DNA of 64,000 nucleotides from Actinokineospora enzanensis DSM 44649 (GTDB lineage Bacteria; Actinomycetota; Actinomycetes; Mycobacteriales; Pseudonocardiaceae), in assembly GCF_000374445.1 (NCBI RefSeq), contig NZ_KB894413.1, forward strand, positions 1 through 64,000. Direction: 5' to 3'. The notes beneath the pieces are model-generated. The model did no database searches. It had not been told where the DNA came from and was given only the letters and a program-made list of their open reading frames with translations. The translations under genes and the position numbers were made by a program. Shown one piece after another: positions 2,440-53,372 of this stretch; position 1 is the first letter of the stretch, and every line of letters begins with the position of its first letter.

Positions 2440-2678
2440 CCTTCACAGCGCGCACGGTCATCACGTCCGACGAACCTTTGGCGAACATCATCCCGCTGCG
2501 CCTGCGCCGTGATCACCGGCCGGGACTGACGCCTTTGGCGGCCGTCGACTCGCTCAGGACGGACTTCCACCCCTGTGGACAACACCGCGCACTCCGCCAT
2601 GCACCACCGGTAACGTGGAAACCGGGGGTCCCCCACCGGTTGTCCACATCCCGTCGAACCGTCCACAGGTGGGCGTGA
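2440..2678. other. Intergenic cluster of DnaA-box-like sequences
   Basis: Between the MarR gene and the convergent DUF3817 gene lie two perfect actinobacterial DnaA-box sequences in opposite orientation (TGTGGACAA at 2574-2582 and TTGTCCACA at 2640-2648) and a partial one, GTCCACA, at 2661-2667. No replication genes are near, so this is not the origin. It may be a DnaA titration or regulatory site. Confidence 0.5.
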
Positions 2679-9286: not shown

Positions 9287-9605
9287 GGTCGGTATGTCCT
9301 TTTCACCCGGGTGCGGCCACGGGTGCCGCACGTCAGTCGCGGTGGACCTTCCACCGGATCGACCGTATGACACGTGCGTAGTTCACCGACCGCAAACCGT
9401 GACGACCACCTCACCCGTCCGGCGGTACATCAGATCTCGTTTATCCACAAGAGACGGTGTGAACACGCGCGATCCCGTGCCGACACAGTGCAAACCGGGG
9501 AAAACACGCGTACGTGCGGTCGGTCACACCGGGCGGATCTGAATCGCTACCCGTGAGTAACGTCGCCGGTCTCCAGCCCCAGTGTCGACAAGCGGGAGGT
9601 CCGCC
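9287..9605. other. Divergent promoter region, peptide transporter and ccr
   Basis: About 320 bases without a gene. It holds a perfect TTATCCACA (DnaA-box-like) at 9441-9449 and the CTAC-N6-GTAA operator candidate at 9547-9560, 45 bases before ccr. No riboswitch-like fold is recognised. Confidence 0.55.
9547..9560. promoter_or_regulatory. Palindromic operator candidate upstream of ccr
   Basis: CTACCCGTGAGTAA, identical at 13 of 14 bases to the site before lpd at 22361-22374. Half-sites TTAC/GTAA are separated by six bases, as at the other three sites. The position in the ccr leader fits a repressor site. Confidence 0.55.
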
Positions 9606-17080: not shown

Positions 17081-17190
17081 AGAAGCTATCCACAGGCAAG
17101 ATCCACAACTCGCTGTTGAAGATCCACTGACAGTCCCGCCCGGTAGAATGGCCGTGGGGGCTCCCCCTGGGTGCGGCGGGCTGTGCTGCG
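17081..17190 (+). repeat. Possible relative of the dispersed promoter/DnaA-box element
   Basis: TATCCACAG and ATCCACAAC (17087-17109) are followed by TAGAATGG at 17144 and a G5-CTCCCCC hairpin-like stretch, then a TGGGTGCGGCGGG tail, as in the copies near 49.8 and 52.8 kb. But the -35 at the right spacing is absent, so it may be only a distant relative. It lies just upstream of the TfoX-like gene. Confidence 0.35.
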
Positions 17191-48219: not shown

Positions 48220-49467
48220 ATGAGCAACGTCGATGTCGTCATCACCGGGCTGGGTGCGACCACGCCGCTCGGCGGTGACGTCTCGTCCACCTGGGATGCC
48301 CTGCTGGCAGGCCAGAACGGCATCCGGGTCAACACGGAGGAGTGGGTCGAACGCTTCGACCTGCCCGCCCGGTTGCACGCGCCGCTGGCCGTGGAGCCCA
48401 CCGAGGTCCTGCCGCGCGTGCAGGCCCGCAGGCTCGACCGGTCCGAGCAGATCGCGGTCATCGCCGCGCGCGAGGCGTGGGCGGACGCCGGGTTCGAGCC
48501 ACCCACCGACGAACACGAGTCGGTGGACCCGGAACGCCTCGGGGTCAGCATCGGCACCGGCATCGGCGGCCCGCGCACCCTGCTCGACCAGGACGACCTC
48601 CTGGAACAGTACGGCCTGCGCAAGGTCTCGCCGTTGACGGTGCCGATGCTGATGCCCAACGGCCCGGCCGCGCACGTGGGCATCGAGCTGCGCGCGCGGG
48701 CAGGCGTGCACACCACGGTGTCGGCCTGCGCCTCGGGCGCGGAGGCCATCGCCAACGCCTGGCAGATGATCCAGAACGGCCGCGCGGACGTGGTCGTCGC
48801 GGGCGGCACCGAGGCCTGCATCCACCCGATCACGGTCGCGGGCTTCTGCCAGTCGCGCACCCTGAGCACCCGCAACGACGAGCCGGACCGCGCCTCCCGC
48901 CCGTTCGACACCGGCCGCGACGGCTTCGTCCTCGGCGAGGGCGCGGGCGTGCTGATCCTGGAACGCGCCGACCACGCCGCCGCCCGCGGCGCGAAGGTCT
49001 ACGGGCACCTGTCCGGCTACGGCATCACCTCGGACGCCTACCACATCACCGGCAACCACCCGGACGGCATCGGCCAGATCCGCGCCATGCGCGACGCGGT
49101 CCGCATGGGCGGCCTGTCCCCCGAGGACATCGGCCACGTCAACGCCCACGCCACCTCCACGGTCGTCGGCGACGTCGGCGAGGCCGCCGCCATCCGCAAC
49201 GCCCTCGGCGAGCACGTGGTCGTCACCGCCCCCAAGTCCGCCTTCGGCCACCTGGTCGGCGGCGCGGGCGCGGTGGAGAGCATCGCCACCATCCTGGCGA
49301 TCTACTACGGCGTCATCCCGGCCACCCGCAACCTGGAGAACCTCGACCCCAAGGTCGGCCTGGACGTGGTCAGCGGCGAGGCCCGGAAGATCGAACTCGC
49401 CGCGGCGATCAACAACTCGTTCGGCTTCGGCGGCCACAACGTCGCCCTGCTGTTCACCGCCGCCTGA
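48220..49467 (+). CDS. fabF: Beta-ketoacyl-ACP synthase II
   Basis: A 415-residue KAS II that elongates acyl chains by condensation with malonyl-ACP. The Cys-His-His triad is Cys170 in SACASGAEA, one His in VNAHATSTVVGD and the other in FGHLVGGAGAVE; NNSFGFGGHN closes the fold. ATG at 48220 with GGAAA upstream. The last gene of the fab operon; a 10-bp hairpin follows five bases after the stop codon. Confidence 0.97.
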   Translation: MSNVDVVITGLGATTPLGGDVSSTWDALLAGQNGIRVNTEEWVERFDLPARLHAPLAVEPTEVLPRVQARRLDRSEQIAVIAAREAWADAGFEPPTDEHESVDPERLGVSIGTGIGGPRTLLDQDDLLEQYGLRKVSPLTVPMLMPNGPAAHVGIELRARAGVHTTVSACASGAEAIANAWQMIQNGRADVVVAGGTEACIHPITVAGFCQSRTLSTRNDEPDRASRPFDTGRDGFVLGEGAGVLILERADHAAARGAKVYGHLSGYGITSDAYHITGNHPDGIGQIRAMRDAVRMGGLSPEDIGHVNAHATSTVVGDVGEAAAIRNALGEHVVVTAPKSAFGHLVGGAGAVESIATILAIYYGVIPATRNLENLDPKVGLDVVSGEARKIELAAAINNSFGFGGHNVALLFTAA

Positions 49468-49472
49468 CCGCC

Positions 49473-49499
49473 GGGGCGGGCCCTTCTCCGGCCCGCCCC
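49473..49499 (+). terminator. Terminator hairpin after fabF
   Basis: ggggcgggcc (49473-49482) pairs perfectly with 49490-49499, seven-base loop, directly after the operon. Confidence 0.8.
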
Positions 49500-49502
49500 A
49501 CC

Positions 49503-49613
49503 CTCCCGGGGGCGACCCCGAGGCCATTCTCTCGGGTATATGGGCAGGTCAAAGGGGGTGCGGTGGGGCTGTGGACGGATTTCGGGATTGTGGATAACCC
49601 GCCCGCAGGTCAA
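49503..49613 (-). repeat. Dispersed promoter/DnaA-box element, copy a
   Basis: Minus-strand order: TTATCCACA (49589-49597, a perfect DnaA box), CTGTCCACAG-like site reading GTCCACAG near 49570, then TTTGAC (49548-49553), a 16-base spacer and GAGAAT (49526-49531), followed by a GGGGTCGCCCCC hairpin-like stretch that ends at the fabF terminator. Homologous to copies b and c. Confidence 0.7.
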
Positions 49614-49756
49614 CGCCCGGCATGATTGATCAAGGCGGGAGACCACTCGAACGGGAGGCTGGACCCAGTCCCTGCGCGACTCTCGAACCGGGGTCCTCGA
49701 CCCGCTCACGAACGAACCCCTTGCAAGATCACCGCCCGACGACCGCCCCAACACAT

Positions 49757-49906
49757 CCCCCGCCACTCCCAGGGGGGCGACCCCGGAGCCATTCTATCGC
49801 GCATAGCCGCAGGTCAAAGGGGGCGCGGCCGGGTTGTGGACAGATTCGGGGATTGTGGACAACCGGATCGCAGGTCAGGGCGAGGGACAGGATCCAGGTC
49901 AGGAAA
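49757..49906 (-). repeat. Dispersed promoter/DnaA-box element, copy b
   Basis: Minus strand: TTGTCCACA (49854-49862), CTGTCCACA (49835-49843), TTTGAC (49813-49818), a 16-base spacer, TAGAAT (49791-49796), then a C6-containing hairpin-like segment. Nearly identical to copy c over about 60 bases around the promoter-like part. It begins right at the stop codon of the gene to its right, in the same orientation. Confidence 0.8.
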
Positions 49907-49908
49907 GT

Positions 49909-51132
49909 TCACCCGGACAGGCTCAGCCGCAAAGCCCGCGAGGCGATCTCGCGCAACAACGGATCGTCCGCCCGTGACGGTTCGTCCAGCCACACCGCCT
50001 GCGCCAGCTTGACGCTGTTCCCCTCCTGCCCACTCACCCGAGCCGCCCCCGCGAAGACGGGTTGTAGGCCGCCCGGCCACGGCACGCCCTCCACGTCGAG
50101 CACGCCGCCCGCGTCGGGCCGGGTCGTCACGCTCATCAGTTCCGTGGCCGAGGTACTCCCGGTGATCCGGACGACACCCACCAGCACCGCCGCGCGCTTC
50201 CCCTGGTCGGTCGTCTCGAATCGGCCACGCAGAAGGGCCGCGCAGCCGTTGCGTTCGAGCCAGGCATGAATCGCACCATCGGTGTGAGCAGCGCAATCCG
50301 ACTGTTCGACGAACCCACGCGGCACGAACGCGGGCGGGGACGCGGGTCGAGCGGGTGTCATCGGGCTGTCGTCGGCCGCGACCGCCACCGCGATGCCCGC
50401 GACCAGGAGTAACGCGACCACGACACCGATCGTCACGGGTAACCAGCGCTTGCGGCGGCGCGGTTCCGGGCGCGCCATCCCGCCCGGGACACGGGGCAGG
50501 ATCGTCGTGCTCGCCGCGCCCGCCTCCGGTGAGAGGCCGTCCGGGAATCCCTCGGCGACCAGGTCGTCATCGTCGAGTCCGTGGCCCTGGTGCAGGGCGA
50601 ACAGGATCCGGCGGGCCTCATCGAGCATGCAGGCCCGGCTGTGCGTGGCCAGGTCGCGGGTGACCGCCAGCAGTGGCATCGGCTCGGGGTGCAGGATGCG
50701 GATGCCGCGTTCCTCGGCGGGCTGGTCGACCTCACCCACATAGGGGCCGACGGCCACGACCGTGTGAACGGGCAGCGGTCGGGGCTGGGCGGCCCGGACG
50801 AGGTCGGCAACGGCGGCCGTGGCGGACAGGGCGCCGTCGGCCGGGTTGACCGGGCCGTCCGGGCGGGTCAACGGCCAGCCGTCGATCCGCCACGGGCCGG
50901 TCATCGGAGCGGACAGGCGCATGGCCGGATCCGGCAGGTCCACCCCGATCACCACGAACACACCCCGCGGCAACAACAGGACCGCCTCGACGGTCGAGCC
51001 GAAACCGGGCGGTCGGACGCCGAGCAGCGCCACCCCGCCCGCGACGGTGGAGCCCCGGCCCCACGAGGTCAGCGCCGCGCGCACGGTCCCGCCGACCTCG
51101 GCGGTCGGCTCGCCGACCCGGACCAAGCGCAC
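49909..51132 (-). CDS. Actinobacterial single-pass membrane protein, unknown
   Basis: A 407-residue protein: an N-terminal cytoplasmic domain of about 245 residues (VGEPTAEVGGTVRAALTSWG, VHTVVAVGPYVGEVDQPAEE), one transmembrane helix at about 250-272 (WLPVTIGVVVALLLVAGIAV), then an extracytoplasmic domain of about 130 residues with AHTDGAIHAWLERNGCAAL. The first domain vaguely resembles NERD-type nuclease-like folds, which is uncertain. The topology fits a signalling or envelope protein. GTG at 51132 follows GGAGG with seven bases spacing. Divergent from the DUF3145 gene with 440 bases between. Confidence 0.75.
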   Translation of the reverse strand: MRLVRVGEPTAEVGGTVRAALTSWGRGSTVAGGVALLGVRPPGFGSTVEAVLLLPRGVFVVIGVDLPDPAMRLSAPMTGPWRIDGWPLTRPDGPVNPADGALSATAAVADLVRAAQPRPLPVHTVVAVGPYVGEVDQPAEERGIRILHPEPMPLLAVTRDLATHSRACMLDEARRILFALHQGHGLDDDDLVAEGFPDGLSPEAGAASTTILPRVPGGMARPEPRRRKRWLPVTIGVVVALLLVAGIAVAVAADDSPMTPARPASPPAFVPRGFVEQSDCAAHTDGAIHAWLERNGCAALLRGRFETTDQGKRAAVLVGVVRITGSTSATELMSVTTRPDAGGVLDVEGVPWPGGLQPVFAGAARVSGQEGNSVKLAQAVWLDEPSRADDPLLREIASRALRLSLSG

Positions 51133-51571
51133 GCTGTCACCTCCGCACGGCCACCGGACGTCACACAGACCGGTGGGATCTGCACCACACGCTAGCGTCA
51201 GTGACGCCCGGTCAGGTGACAGGACGTCGGAAGGTAGCCGATCGGCGCCGGGCGGTGATCTCCGACCCATCTCGCCACACCGCGCAACGCGGGCGCCGCT
51301 CGCGCGTCCACTCGGACAAGCAAGATCAACGGGCCTGCCGGAAGCGCGCCGAGGGCGGCGGCGAATCCGGACATGCCCGCCTCGCCCTGCCCCGGTCCGC
51401 CGCCGAACGGCGCGGAATGGCTGGGGCGCAGGTTGTTTTCGGGGTTCGTGTGGCCAAAGTGTCCGGTAGCAGGGCAGAATGAGCGCCGGGAATGGCACGT
51501 GTGGTCCAGGCAACCGTTGATCGCGCAGGACGTAGGGGAAGACGATCCTCGTCGAGCAGCGGAGGTCAGCA
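51133..51571. other. Divergent intergenic region, membrane protein and DUF3145
   Basis: About 440 bases without a gene; no repeat, hairpin or known motif stands out. Presumably the promoters of both flanking genes. Confidence 0.5.
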
Positions 51572-52075
51572 GTGAGCACCCGTGGCAACACCCAAGGCGT
51601 GGTGTACGTCCACTCGTCGCCGTCTGCGGTATGTCCGCACGTCGAGTGGGCGATTTCGGGCACCCTCGGGGTGCGCGCCGAGCTGCGCTGGACCGCGCAG
51701 CCCGCCGCCCCCGGGCAGCTGCGCGCCGAGTGCGCGTGGACCGGCGACGTGGGCACCGGCGGCAAGCTCGCCACCGCGCTGCGCGCGTGGCCGATGCTCC
51801 GGTTCGAGGTCACCGAGGAGCCCAGTCCCGGCGTCGACGGCGAACGCTACTGCTACGCCCCCGCCCTCGGCCTGTGGCGCGCCCGCACGAGCGCCAGCGG
51901 CGACATCGTGGTGGACGAGAACCAGCTGCGCGCGATCGCCGCGTCCGCACGCGGCGGCGAGTCGTTCGCGTTCAAGGTGGACGAACTGCTCGGCGCCTCC
52001 TGGGACGAGGCCCTGGAGCCGTACCGGCGCGGCGGCGATGGCGCCCCGGTGACCTGGCTGCACCGCGTCGGGTGA
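51572..52075 (+). CDS. DUF3145-family protein
   Basis: A 167-residue protein of the DUF3145 family: VVYVHSSPSAVCPHVEWAIS, RAWPMLRFEVTEEPSPGVDG, ERYCYAPALGLWRA, SFAFKVDELLGASWDEALEP. Found almost only in actinobacteria and often beside the fab operon, as here; function unknown. GTG at 51572 follows GGAGG at about 51561-51565. No membrane segment. A small membrane-anchored protein gene follows. Confidence 0.9.
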   Translation: MSTRGNTQGVVYVHSSPSAVCPHVEWAISGTLGVRAELRWTAQPAAPGQLRAECAWTGDVGTGGKLATALRAWPMLRFEVTEEPSPGVDGERYCYAPALGLWRARTSASGDIVVDENQLRAIAASARGGESFAFKVDELLGASWDEALEPYRRGGDGAPVTWLHRVG

Positions 52076-52102
52076 CCCATCCGCCTGTGAGACGCTGACC
52101 GC

Positions 52103-52702
52103 GTGCACCCGAAGGCCCCCGGCCAGGAGCGACAGCGCTGGTTGCTGCCCGCCATCCTCGTCGCCGTCGTGATCGCCGCCGCGGCCGCCATGGTCGCCCG
52201 CGAGCTGTACGCGGCCGCGGCCGACAAGGGGCAGGCCACCTCGACGGCCATCCTGCCCAGCCAGAACGTGCTGCCGGAGAGCGCCCGCCCCGGCCCGCGC
52301 GACGTGCGCGCCACCCAGGACGCGATCCAGCACCCGCTGTACGAGGCCGTCCGCCAGCTGCTGCAGACGCACTTCGACGCGATCAACGGCAAGAACTACG
52401 CGCGGTGGCGCACGACCGTCACCGACGCCCGCGCGAAGGACCTCCCCGAGGACACCTGGCGCGCGTCGTACCGCACCACGCAGGACGGCAGCATCGTCGT
52501 CTACCGTATCGAGACCGGCCCGACCAACTCCGCCCGCGTGCTGCTGACCTTCGTGAGCAAGCAGGACCCGGCCGACGCCCCGCTGGAGCTCCCGGCCGAG
52601 TGCATCCGCTGGAACGTGATCTTCCCGCTCACCCTCGCCGACGGCGAATGGCGCATCGACGCAGGCGCGACCAGCGCATCGCCCCAGCACGATCGCTGCT
52701 GA
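52103..52702 (+). CDS. Membrane-anchored protein with NTF2-like extracytoplasmic part
   Basis: A 199-residue protein: short cytoplasmic start, one transmembrane helix at about 14-34 (LLPAILVAVVIAAAAAMVAR), then an extracytoplasmic domain of about 160 residues. DAINGKNYARWRTTVTDARA and WRIDAG near the end resemble the SnoaL/NTF2-like cone fold common in actinobacterial envelope proteins (Mce-associated and lumazine-like examples); this is fold inference. GTG at 52103. Its stop codon is followed by the dispersed element copy c. Confidence 0.75.
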   Translation: MHPKAPGQERQRWLLPAILVAVVIAAAAAMVARELYAAAADKGQATSTAILPSQNVLPESARPGPRDVRATQDAIQHPLYEAVRQLLQTHFDAINGKNYARWRTTVTDARAKDLPEDTWRASYRTTQDGSIVVYRIETGPTNSARVLLTFVSKQDPADAPLELPAECIRWNVIFPLTLADGEWRIDAGATSASPQHDRC

Positions 52703-52707
52703 CCTCT

Positions 52708-52870
52708 CCCGGGTGAACTTCCCCGCCCGCCGTTCCCCTCCCCCGCCCTGACCTGCACCCCGGATATCCACCACCCCCGAAGTTGTCCACAGCCGCCCCA
52801 CACCCCCTTTGACCTGCGGCTATGCGCGATAGAACGGCTCCGGGGTCGCCCCCCTGGGAGTGGCGGGGGC
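52708..52870 (+). repeat. Dispersed promoter/DnaA-box element, copy c
   Basis: Plus strand: ATATCCACC and TTGTCCACA (52783-52791) precede TTTGAC (52808-52813), a 16-base spacer and TAGAAC (52830-52835), then the GGGGTCGCCCCCC segment. Starts at GGGTGAACTTCC just after the preceding gene's stop codon, the same position as copy b. Confidence 0.8.
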
Positions 52871-53124
52871 TGCGTTGGGGCGTTTCGGCGGCGGGGCGGT
52901 CAAGCGAGGTATCGGGGCGACGTCCGGGCGGGACGTTTCGGCTTGGGAGTGTGGGCGGGGATCGGGGTGGGTGATCTTGGATAGGGCGCGTCGGACGCGG
53001 GACTCGGCGGCCGCCGAATCCCGCGAATACCTGCCCCCGTCCGGGTGGATTCGCCTGCGGTGAACCACCGGCATCACCCATGACCAGGGGGCCGGGTCGG
53101 CCACATCCCCCGATTCCGTCACCG

Positions 53125-53180
53125 GCCGTTGCACTCTGTTTGACCAGCGCAAACGCCCGATAGACCGGCCTCGGAAGGTG
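53125..53180 (+). promoter_or_regulatory. Promoter-like element, copy d
   Basis: CCGTTGCA, then TTTGAC (53139-53144), a 16-base spacer and TAGACC (53161-53166). Upstream DnaA-type boxes are absent; the GTTGCA motif is shared with copy e only. Confidence 0.6.
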
Positions 53181-53319
53181 CCGAACCAGCCGAATGGGAC
53201 CCGGATCGGGGCCGACAGACGCCCGTTCCAGGTCCCATTCGGGTGGTTCTCCGCGCGATATGCGGCATCCCGCCATGCCCCTGGCCGCGGGCCCGGTTCC
53301 GGCGAATCCGCCCCACCGA

Positions 53320-53372
53320 CCCGTTGCAGTCCATTTGACCTGGGCTTACATCGGATAGACCGGTCCTCCATG
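53320..53372 (+). promoter_or_regulatory. Promoter-like element, copy e
   Basis: CCGTTGCA, TTTGAC (53334-53339), 16-base spacer, TAGACC (53356-53361), as in copy d. A GAGGAGG ribosome-binding-like sequence and an ATG at 53401 follow about 40 bases later. Confidence 0.6.

What the first reader, a model, noticed from the sequence alone, without database searches (positions are those of the whole stretch)
49503..53372. Dispersed intergenic element: DnaA-box pair plus promoter-like signal with a fixed 16-bp spacer
Copies a (49.5 kb), b (49.8 kb) and c (52.8 kb) share about 110-160 bases: a repeated TGACCTGC, one or two TT(A/G)TCCACA-type boxes, a C-rich run, then TTTGACCTGC, 16 bases, and (T/G)AGAAT or TAGAAC, followed by a GGGGTCGCCCC hairpin-like start. 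Copies d and e (53.1 and 53.3 kb) keep the TTTGAC-16-TAGACC part with a different upstream motif (GTTGCA). All five have exactly 16 bases between the boxes. Copies b and c start immediately after a gene's stop codon and point in the same direction as that gene. Established: TTATCCACA/TTGTCCACA are DnaA-box consensus; TTGAC/TAGRRT are actinobacterial sigma consensus-like. Inference: a mobile or duplicated promoter family, perhaps with DnaA-linked, replication-timed control, or the promoters of short untranslated RNAs.
Basis: partly seen in the sequence, partly recalled or inferred. Interest (0 to 1): 0.72.

Follow-up and report, generated by a model that had tools for sequence, protein, structure and literature searches.

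The report
Scattered DnaA-box repeat in actinomycetes
The finding is real: this soil bacterium and many of its relatives carry a short repeat, scattered along the chromosome and often lying between the tail ends of facing genes, that brings look-alike binding sites for the replication starter DnaA, so that the genome holds about fifteen times more of these sites than a control motif.

Summary
The five sites exist (5 matches, 0.30 expected). Copies a, b and c belong to a dispersed repeat of about 115-130 bp in Actinokineospora and other Pseudonocardiaceae: 45 matches at E<=2e-4 in this genome; best match E<=0.01 in 15 of 16 genomes of the genus, 11 of 21 others of the family, 0 of 24 of other families. 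In named records the parts are one or two DnaA-type boxes (79 of 80 copies), TAGA(A/C)TGG and a GGGG..CGCCCCCC..GGGA block; a TTGAC element at promoter spacing is lacking in 78 of 80. Copies favour convergent gene ends (48 of 68; 11 of 24 here), did not appear behind the orthologous gene in 15 congeners, also lie in frame inside NRPS genes, and flank an inverted segment. The genome holds 520 perfect TTRTCCACA boxes, control 35. Sixteen Amycolatopsis orthologues keep boxes, -10-like motif and G/C block while the spacer drifts. Best reading: a mobile small repeat whose boxes bind DnaA, acting as DnaA sink and transcription boundary. Binding, transcription and movement were not tested. Sites d and e are weak and local.

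The parts
49496..49612 (-). Copy a: box pair, TTTGACC-15-GAGAAT, GGGGTCGCCCCC block; tandem behind b, pointing at the 3' end of the ketoacyl synthase gene
   Evidence: 81% to copy b over 120 nt; perfect box TTATCCACA 49589-49597
49758..49877 (-). Copy b: full element between two convergent genes (49909-51138 on the minus strand, 48220-49467 on the plus strand)
   Evidence: R1 51.9 bits, E 5.8e-13; context convergent (L032)
49854..49862 (-). Copy b, DnaA-type box 1, TTGTCCACA
49835..49843 (-). Copy b, box 2, CTGTCCACA (one base from TTGTCCACA), 19 nt start to start from box 1
   Evidence: sequence; 46 of 47 unique double boxes in own-genome loci have spacing 19 or 20, the search having allowed 17-21
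49791..49818 (-). Copy b, promoter-like TTTGACC-15-TAGAAT
52749..52868 (+). Copy c: full element, 46 nt after the stop of the 199-aa gene; inverted copy of b
   Evidence: R1 46.8 bits, E 2.3e-11
52783..52791 (+). Copy c, DnaA-type box TTGTCCACA (partner ATATCCACC at 52764-52772 is degenerate)
   Evidence: sequence
49744..49892 (.). Left arm of the b/c inverted repeat; near one end of an inverted segment
   Evidence: 86% over 149 nt; gene order
52734..52882 (.). Right arm of the b/c inverted repeat; near the other end of the inverted segment
17074..17184 (+). A further copy in the window, of another own-genome type (GCGACAGAAGCTATCCACAGG ... GGTAGAATGG ... GGGGGCTCCCCC), left edge approximate
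   Evidence: R1 match 17139-17184, E 3.9e-9 (used in building R1); sequence
53126..53168 (+). Site d: GTTGCA-TTTGACC-15-TAGACC, no box, no G/C block; doubtful member
   Evidence: not matched by R1; no other copies by a strict pattern in own-genome loci held
53321..53363 (+). Site e: as d (77% to d over 43 nt); doubtful member

Best explanation
Copies a, b and c are members of a non-autonomous, dispersed small repeat family of Pseudonocardiaceae (about 115-130 bp). Each copy brings one or two DnaA boxes (in this genome 19-20 nt start to start, about two helical turns), a -10-like TAGA(A/C)TGG, and a G-run/C-run block. Shown: copy number, architecture, location bias to convergent gene ends, lack of a copy behind the orthologous gene in congeners, in-frame copies in NRPS genes, stronger conservation of the boxes than of the spacer, position at the ends of a local inversion, and a large surplus of perfect boxes. 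Inferred: the copies spread by insertion; survivors accumulate where they do least harm (3'-3' junctions); the boxes are bound by DnaA; and this occupancy has two effects, (i) at the junction, bound DnaA (with the -10/G-run part) hinders RNA polymerase leaving either gene, a boundary element, and (ii) summed over the genome, the boxes hold a large part of the cell's DnaA. The promoter-like part may fire weakly into the 3' end of the facing gene; that is undecided.
For: Family: 41 blastn matches at E<=1 and 45 R1 matches at E<=2e-4 in the own genome; best match E<=0.01 in 15 of 16 genomes of the genus (own included), 11 of 21 others of the family, 0 of 24 of other families (at E<=0.1: 16, 12 and 3). 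Edges: 29 of 30 fetched copies in G009 align with identity 0.62-0.99 from -70 to +50 of the -10 and mostly about 0.3 outside. Location: 48 of 68 classified copies convergent (14 of 82 not classified); against 76 of 384 junctions in 400 kb of Kutzneria p=2e-19; K. viridogrisea alone 16 of 21, p=4e-8; own genome 11 of 24, p=0.005. In that unselected 400 kb, 7 of 8 strict-pattern copies are convergent. Mobility: no element within the next 417 nt behind the orthologous gene in 15 congeners (one cut at about 230 nt by the contig end; by eye), and R1 matches only one of these 15 loci, in front of the gene; four own copies lie in frame in NRPS genes and lengthen their domains by 61-111 residues against sister domains. 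Selection: in 16 Amycolatopsis orthologues both boxes are 18/18 invariant, the -10 region 9/10, GGGGTCGCCCCCC 12/13, the spacer 7/32. Boxes: 520 perfect TTRTCCACA against 35 for the reversed pattern; genus median 199, other families of the order 31; box number follows R1 number, Spearman 0.83 over 61 genomes. Precedent: DnaA bound within a transcribed region has been described as a roadblock that promotes termination in E. coli (PMC11317965, passages seen).
Against: No binding, RNA or movement data. E. coli DnaA prefers box pairs 2-3 bp apart and loses binding when a base is added between them, and the same paper saw no DnaA at the guaB site, one of the reported roadblock sites (PMC11317965, passages); here 10-11 bp lie between the boxes. 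Box orientation differs between copies (direct or inverted) and 26 of 80 copies show one box or none within 100 nt by a loose definition. No terminal inverted repeat was seen by eye, no target duplication or transposase was identified; RAYT-type transposase is absent from the own genome. R1-poor genomes can still have many boxes (G002 193, G023 168, G028 106). In one 100-kb stretch of congener G006 boxes were at chance level (1 found, 1.0 expected), and in the own genome's 160 kb only 4 of 28 convergent gaps hold boxes. The convergent bias is weaker in the own genome (11 of 24). Conservation among orthologues could partly reflect gene conversion between copies. Which gene order is ancestral at the inversion is not settled: three of six congeners have yet another order.
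Confidence: 0.5

Rival explanations
1. Purely selfish or neutral small interspersed repeat. The boxes and -10 are parts of its own spreading machinery (for example host-factor binding for transposition), and the convergent location is only what purifying selection leaves.
For: No copy behind the orthologous gene in 15 congeners, sequence types that differ between species, tandem arrays, in-frame copies in NRPS genes, position at the ends of an inversion.
Against: Sixteen of 19 close Amycolatopsis orthologues keep the copy at the same junction with boxes and -10 invariant while the spacer drifts, which suggests selection on the site, though gene conversion could mimic it.
Confidence: 0.27
2. 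DnaA-controlled promoter family: DnaA at about -50 to -75 activates a promoter that makes antisense or short RNAs into the 3' end of the facing gene.
For: TTGAC at 43-47 nt from box 1 in 27 of 47 own-genome double boxes, and TAnnnT exactly 21 nt after the TTGAC start in 10 of the 28 with any TTGAC (most of these loci were brought in by likeness to copy b); TAGACT/TAGAAT in many genera; box position would suit an upstream activator (recalled).
Against: TTGAC at promoter spacing in only 2 of 80 copies in named records; the exact-match pattern fixed TAGANTGG beforehand; a spacer of 15 is short for a sigma-70 promoter (recalled); no structured or conserved RNA found; codirectional copies do not clearly favour pointing at a gene start (10 ++ against 6 --).
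Confidence: 0.15
3. Bidirectional intrinsic-type terminator: the G/C block (and in Amycolatopsis the inverted boxes) acts as an RNA hairpin for both genes; DnaA is irrelevant.
For: Convergent location filling the gap; at the same junction two Amycolatopsis genomes have a long palindrome in place of the element (L374, L382); inverted boxes give perfect stems of 9-14 bp in the 16 orthologues; the whole element is slightly more stable than shuffles (mean z -0.60 sense, -0.94 antisense; 23 and 27 of 60 below -1); 6 of 36 own copies have TTTT within 20 nt behind the block.
Against: The block itself is no more stable than shuffles (mean z -0.23, -0.22, +0.32); where the boxes are direct repeats, as in most own-genome and Kutzneria copies shown, they cannot pair with each other; three orthologues change one arm without compensation (L367, L368, L370); 30 of 36 own copies have no TTTT there; sequence, not pairing, is conserved.
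Confidence: 0.08

Closest known systems
Correia/NEMIS elements of Neisseria
   Same: About 100-155 bp, many copies, mostly intergenic, carry promoter-like sequences and, in one form, a binding site for a chromosomal protein (IHF), affect neighbours (PMC2229807 and PMC10969869, passages seen)
   Different: Correia has terminal inverted repeats, target duplication and TA ends; none identified here. The protein site here is the DnaA box, and location favours convergent ends, whereas Correia copies lie predominantly upstream of genes (PMC10969869 passage)
Rickettsia palindromic elements (RPE)
   Same: Small repeats found both between genes and in frame inside protein genes (PMC2229807)
   Different: RPE are palindromic; here 4 of 30 inspected own-genome copies are intragenic, all four in NRPS genes
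REP/BIME with RAYT transposases
   Same: High-copy, extragenic, enriched at gene ends (recalled), G/C-rich inverted block next to a TAG
   Different: No RAYT-type gene (PF01797) in the own genome and in only 2 of 15 congeners; larger unit with DnaA boxes; no pairing signal in the block
Caulobacter CcrM-associated intergenic repeats (CIR)
   Same: Intergenic repeat carrying a putative site of a cell-cycle-regulated protein (PMC2229807 passages)
   Different: Methyltransferase site, not DnaA; different phylum
Chromosomal DnaA-box titration, datA/DARS
   Same: DnaA boxes outside oriC that hold DnaA; about 300 high-affinity boxes in E. coli (PMC10977104 passages)
   Different: There the boxes are scattered or in unique loci; here many come packaged in a repeat family and the number of perfect boxes varies from 100 to 757 within one genus

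Membership tests
MITE-like small mobile repeat | short non-coding unit in many dispersed copies with sharp edges | tested here: met
MITE-like small mobile repeat | presence/absence at orthologous sites, insertion into genes | tested here: met
   no copy behind the orthologous gene in 15 congeners (one locus short); in-frame inserts against shorter sister domains; no exact empty site at base level
MITE-like small mobile repeat | terminal inverted repeats and target-site duplication | tested here: inconclusive
   left edge GAGTTGTCCACA and right edge GGGGGC(C/T)G are not inverted repeats of each other by eye; target duplication not determined
REP/RAYT system | Y1 (RAYT-type) transposase in the genome | tested here: not met
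   PF01797 absent from G000; 6 of 37 genomes positive, control genomes positive in 5 of 14
13E12/DUF222 repeat family | DUF222 HNH gene associated | tested here: not met
   PF02720 absent from G000; control positive in 1 of 14
DnaA-binding site | match to the DnaA box consensus | tested here: met
   TTATCCACA is the E. coli consensus (PMC11317965); TTGTCCACA as the actinobacterial form is recalled
DnaA-binding site | same boxes used at the host's own origin | tested here: inconclusive
   TTGTCCACA or TTATCCACA within 1500 nt of the dnaA domain in G000, G006, G007, G014, G034, but the search looked only for box-like words and the origin itself was not located
DnaA-binding site | actual binding by DnaA | not testable with these tools
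   needs footprinting or ChIP
sigma-70-type promoter | -10 TAnnnT and -35 TTGACA | tested here: inconclusive
   met in this genome; -35 lacking in 78 of 80 copies in named records
structured RNA | stability above shuffles or covarying helix | tested here: not met
   block at shuffle level, whole element only slightly more stable; no covariation in 16 sequences; no Rfam match in the window
intrinsic terminator | GC hairpin followed by U-tract | tested here: inconclusive
   block not more stable than shuffles; TTTT behind it in 6 of 36 own copies; inverted boxes can pair in Amycolatopsis

The most novel reading that the evidence does not exclude
A mobile repeat has loaded these genomes with hundreds of DnaA boxes and has been adopted as a double device: local DnaA roadblocks that separate convergent genes, and a genome-wide DnaA sink whose size (100 to 757 perfect boxes within one genus) shifts the DnaA level needed to start replication.
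Probability: 0.2. Interest if true: 0.85.

Novelty: new variant of a known kind. Interest (0 to 1): 0.62.

Why it matters
The initiator-titration model says that chromosomal DnaA boxes set the timing of replication initiation; in E. coli about 300 high-affinity boxes are spread over the chromosome (PMC10977104 passages), and a 2025 paper states that experimental evidence for titration was still lacking before it (PMC12371093, start of abstract and passages). Here a repeat family goes with a 7.6-fold range of box number between congeners, a natural series for testing the model. It also offers a test of DnaA as a transcription roadblock at gene ends on a genome scale, and it is a small-repeat family for which the searches made listed no description in the papers held.

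Tried and rejected
RAYT/REP membership: rejected, no Y1 transposase in the genome. DUF222/13E12 origin: rejected. Conserved RNA: not supported. A conserved short peptide behind the GGGAG: looked at by eye, no conserved frame seen, dropped without a formal test. Replication-strand bias: 68 co-directional against 34 (p=0.001) in three complete congeners, but each genome alone is p=0.17, 0.008 and 0.14 and the gene-strand bias was not corrected, so not used. Sequence-string literature search: the 20 listed of 944 papers look unrelated. Literature searches for a prior description: none among the titles and abstract starts listed (4 to 20 papers a search); of the two small-repeat reviews searched by term, both have 0 occurrences of 'DnaA', and PMC10969869 has 0 of 'actino' ('actino' was not asked of PMC2229807). 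Only openly licensed PMC papers are held. Papers were seen as passages, none in full. An earlier count said '15 of 21' family members; the right count is 12 of 21 at E<=0.1.
Full report
WHAT IS THERE. Copies a and b (minus strand) are 79% alike over 121 nt; b and c are inverted copies, 86% over 149 nt. Each of a, b and c has one perfect TTRTCCACA box and a weaker partner. Sites d and e share only the promoter-like part with a, b and c, were not matched by the family model, and a strict pattern found no further copies in the own-genome loci held nor upstream of lsr2 in five relatives; I treat them as doubtful. Another family member lies at 17139-17184.

SETTING. Copy b lies between a minus-strand gene without Pfam match (49909-51138) and a ketoacyl synthase gene (48220-49467, PF00109/PF02801); c follows a 199-aa gene without Pfam match; a DUF3145 gene and an Lsr2 gene are close by. 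The window is contig 11 of an 8.12-Mb assembly. It is an Actinokineospora: congener G004 has a contig of the same length (162,027) as A. spheciospongiae EG49; that is inference.

A GENOME-WIDE FAMILY. blastn with copy b gave 41 matches in the own genome at E<=1. A sequence-only model (R1) from 16 own copies gave 93 matches at E<=10, of which 45 at E<=2e-4; only 150 of 8689 first-look candidates were scored, so counts are lower bounds. Among 61 genomes, the best match reaches E<=0.01 in 15 of 16 of the genus (own included; G002 only 0.042), 11 of 21 of the rest of the family, and 0 of 24 of other families; at E<=0.1 the figures are 16, 12 and 3.

ANATOMY. In these records: one or two DnaA-type boxes, direct or inverted, then TAGA(A/C)TGG, then a block GGGG N CG CCCCCC N GGGA ... 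GGGGG (the search pattern fixed most of the last two parts). Of 80 copies with enough upstream sequence, 79 have at least one box within 100 nt and 54 two or more, by a loose definition. In 29 aligned copies of congener G009 (of 30 fetched; one did not fit the anchor) identity is 0.62-0.99 from -70 to +50 of the -10-like motif and mostly about 0.3 beyond. In own-genome loci, most of them brought in by likeness to copy b, 46 of 47 unique double boxes have start-to-start spacing 19 or 20 (17-21 allowed); 27 of 47 have TTGAC 43-47 nt from box 1, and where TAnnnT follows it is always 21 nt from the TTGAC start (10 of 28 with any TTGAC). But TTGAC at promoter spacing occurs in only 2 of 80 copies in named records, so the -35-like part is not a family feature. 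The own genome also has tandem arrays of roughly 150-bp units with several boxes.

LITTLE RNA STRUCTURE. For 60 of 81 copies folded against dinucleotide shuffles, the part from the -10 on has mean z -0.23 (sense) and -0.22 (antisense), the supposed transcript +0.32; the whole element is slightly more stable, -0.60 sense and -0.94 antisense, with 23 and 27 of 60 below -1. RNAalifold on 16 own copies gave 5 pairs without covariation. The 'hairpin' is thus conserved as sequence, not shown as structure. Six of 36 own copies matched by a pattern have TTTT within 20 nt behind the block.

WHERE IT SITS. With a home-made gene caller, 68 of 82 exact copies could be classified: 48 convergent, 10 ++, 6 --, 4 divergent (10 at locus edges, 4 called inside genes). 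In 400 contiguous kb of Kutzneria viridogrisea 76 of 384 junctions are convergent: p=2e-19 for 48 of 68. These loci include orthologues, so the safer figure is K. viridogrisea alone, 16 of 21 (counted by hand), p=4e-8; in the unselected 400 kb, 7 of 8 strict-pattern copies are convergent. In the own genome the bias is weaker, 11 of 24 classified of 30 (p=0.005). By eye the element often fills the gap between the two stops, and its 5' end TGAGTTGTCCACA can include the stop codon.

MOBILITY. In 417 nt behind the orthologue of the 199-aa gene no element is seen in 15 congeners (one, L116, ends after about 230 nt; by eye). R1 matches one of these 15 loci, G013, in front of the gene. Four own copies (C15:142932, 145711, 150270; C69:5567) lie inside open NRPS reading frames; coding signal drops over the element and returns in the same frame. 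Two epimerization-type domains have 91 and 93 residues between a conserved motif and HHxxxDG where sisters have 13 and 14; an adenylation domain has 131 before its YTSG motif where sisters have 20-31; the C69 condensation domain spans 150 where four condensation domains of the C15 cluster span 75-89. Pfam confirms the domains. The two epimerization copies may be one insertion duplicated with its module. In three of six congener regions (G010, G004, G001) the genes read ketoacyl synthase, 199-aa gene, DUF3145, 409-aa gene, with lsr2 next where the region reaches it; the window has the three middle genes inverted, with b and c at the two ends of the inverted part. The other three regions have another order, and none of the six has an R1 match. 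That b and c caused the inversion, and which order is older, is inference.

SELECTION. A search with the gene next to one Amycolatopsis copy found it in 73 of 80 genomes; 30 loci were fetched. Of the 19 close orthologues, 16 carry the element at the same junction; the boxes are 18/18 invariant, -10 +-2 nt 9/10, GGGGTCGCCCCCC 12/13, the spacer 7/32 (identity 0.73), upstream sequence 0.40; the neighbouring coding end is 0.89. Two others (L374, L382) have a long palindrome there instead, and L383 neither. R1 matches none of these three nor the 11 more distant loci fetched. Gene conversion among copies is an alternative to selection.

A BURDEN OF DnaA BOXES. The own genome has 520 perfect TTRTCCACA against 35 for the reversed pattern; the genus ranges 100-757 (median 199), the rest of the family 39-353 (median 97), other families of the order 5-100 (median 31). 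In contiguous stretches boxes are almost all intergenic: 17 of 27 intergenic boxes convergent in 160 kb of G000, though in only 4 of 28 convergent gaps, and 16 of 29 in K. viridogrisea, in 11 of 76 gaps; they are at chance level in a G006 stretch and in 100-kb stretches of seven genomes with no R1 match or one marginal match. Box words also occur around dnaA in five genomes, in a search that looked for nothing else.

HOW IT PROBABLY WORKS. A non-autonomous repeat spreads by an unknown mechanism; its boxes are bound by DnaA; at convergent ends occupancy hinders polymerases leaving either gene, and together the boxes hold much DnaA. E. coli precedent: DnaA has been described as a roadblock within transcribed regions (PMC11317965, passages seen), and about 300 boxes hold most DnaA (PMC10977104, passages seen). 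Against: the same paper finds that E. coli DnaA wants boxes 2-3 bp apart and saw none at the guaB roadblock site, and nothing here measures binding.

VERDICT. Real, widespread, and not found described in the searches made; a new variant of the small interspersed repeat kind. Function remains inferred.

Noticed in passing
L320 (G000 C15:140001-160000), around C15:142932, 145711, 150270; L055 (C69:5567): Repeat copies inside NRPS genes, read in frame and lengthening epimerization, adenylation and condensation domains by 61-111 residues against sister domains; the C69 copy is in reverse orientation.
   Followed up: partly
G000 C2:75319-75895, 135692-136233, 149694-150220 (L309, L312, L313): Tandem arrays of roughly 150-bp units in convergent gaps, with several DnaA-type boxes, TTGACG, a TAnnnT and CGGGGATCCCC.
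   Followed up: partly
L374 and L382 (Amycolatopsis): At the junction where 16 relatives have the element, a palindrome of about 45 bp (22-bp perfect stem in L382) stands between the two stops.
   Followed up: partly
L118 (congener G013), 1276-1319: An R1 match (E 4.5e-6) about 180 nt in front of the 199-aa gene, where the window has none.
   Followed up: no
L366-L384, upstream of the element: Another short repeat (GCGTCC..TGCGGC..GGCGTCCTTC type units) next to the element in several Amycolatopsis, by eye.
   Followed up: no
window 53183-53249: Inverted repeat with 28-nt arms, 89%, 11-nt loop, between sites d and e in the 1.4-kb stretch before lsr2.
   Followed up: no
window 2574-2648 and 9441: Further perfect DnaA-type boxes: two in opposite orientation 66 bp apart (the one at 2640 is a double box) and a single one at 9441.
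   Followed up: no
L226 (JOAA01000035.1, named Rhodococcus rhodnii NRRL B-16535): The copy and its upstream flank are nearly those of Kibdelosporangium aridum (L180); the record is probably mislabelled or contaminated.
   Followed up: partly
own genome C2 and Kutzneria stretches: CAAGATCA/CAAGATCC/GATCTTG words are about 3 to 11 times more frequent than base composition predicts, many of them in coding sequence, and recur in the elements; meaning unknown.
   Followed up: no
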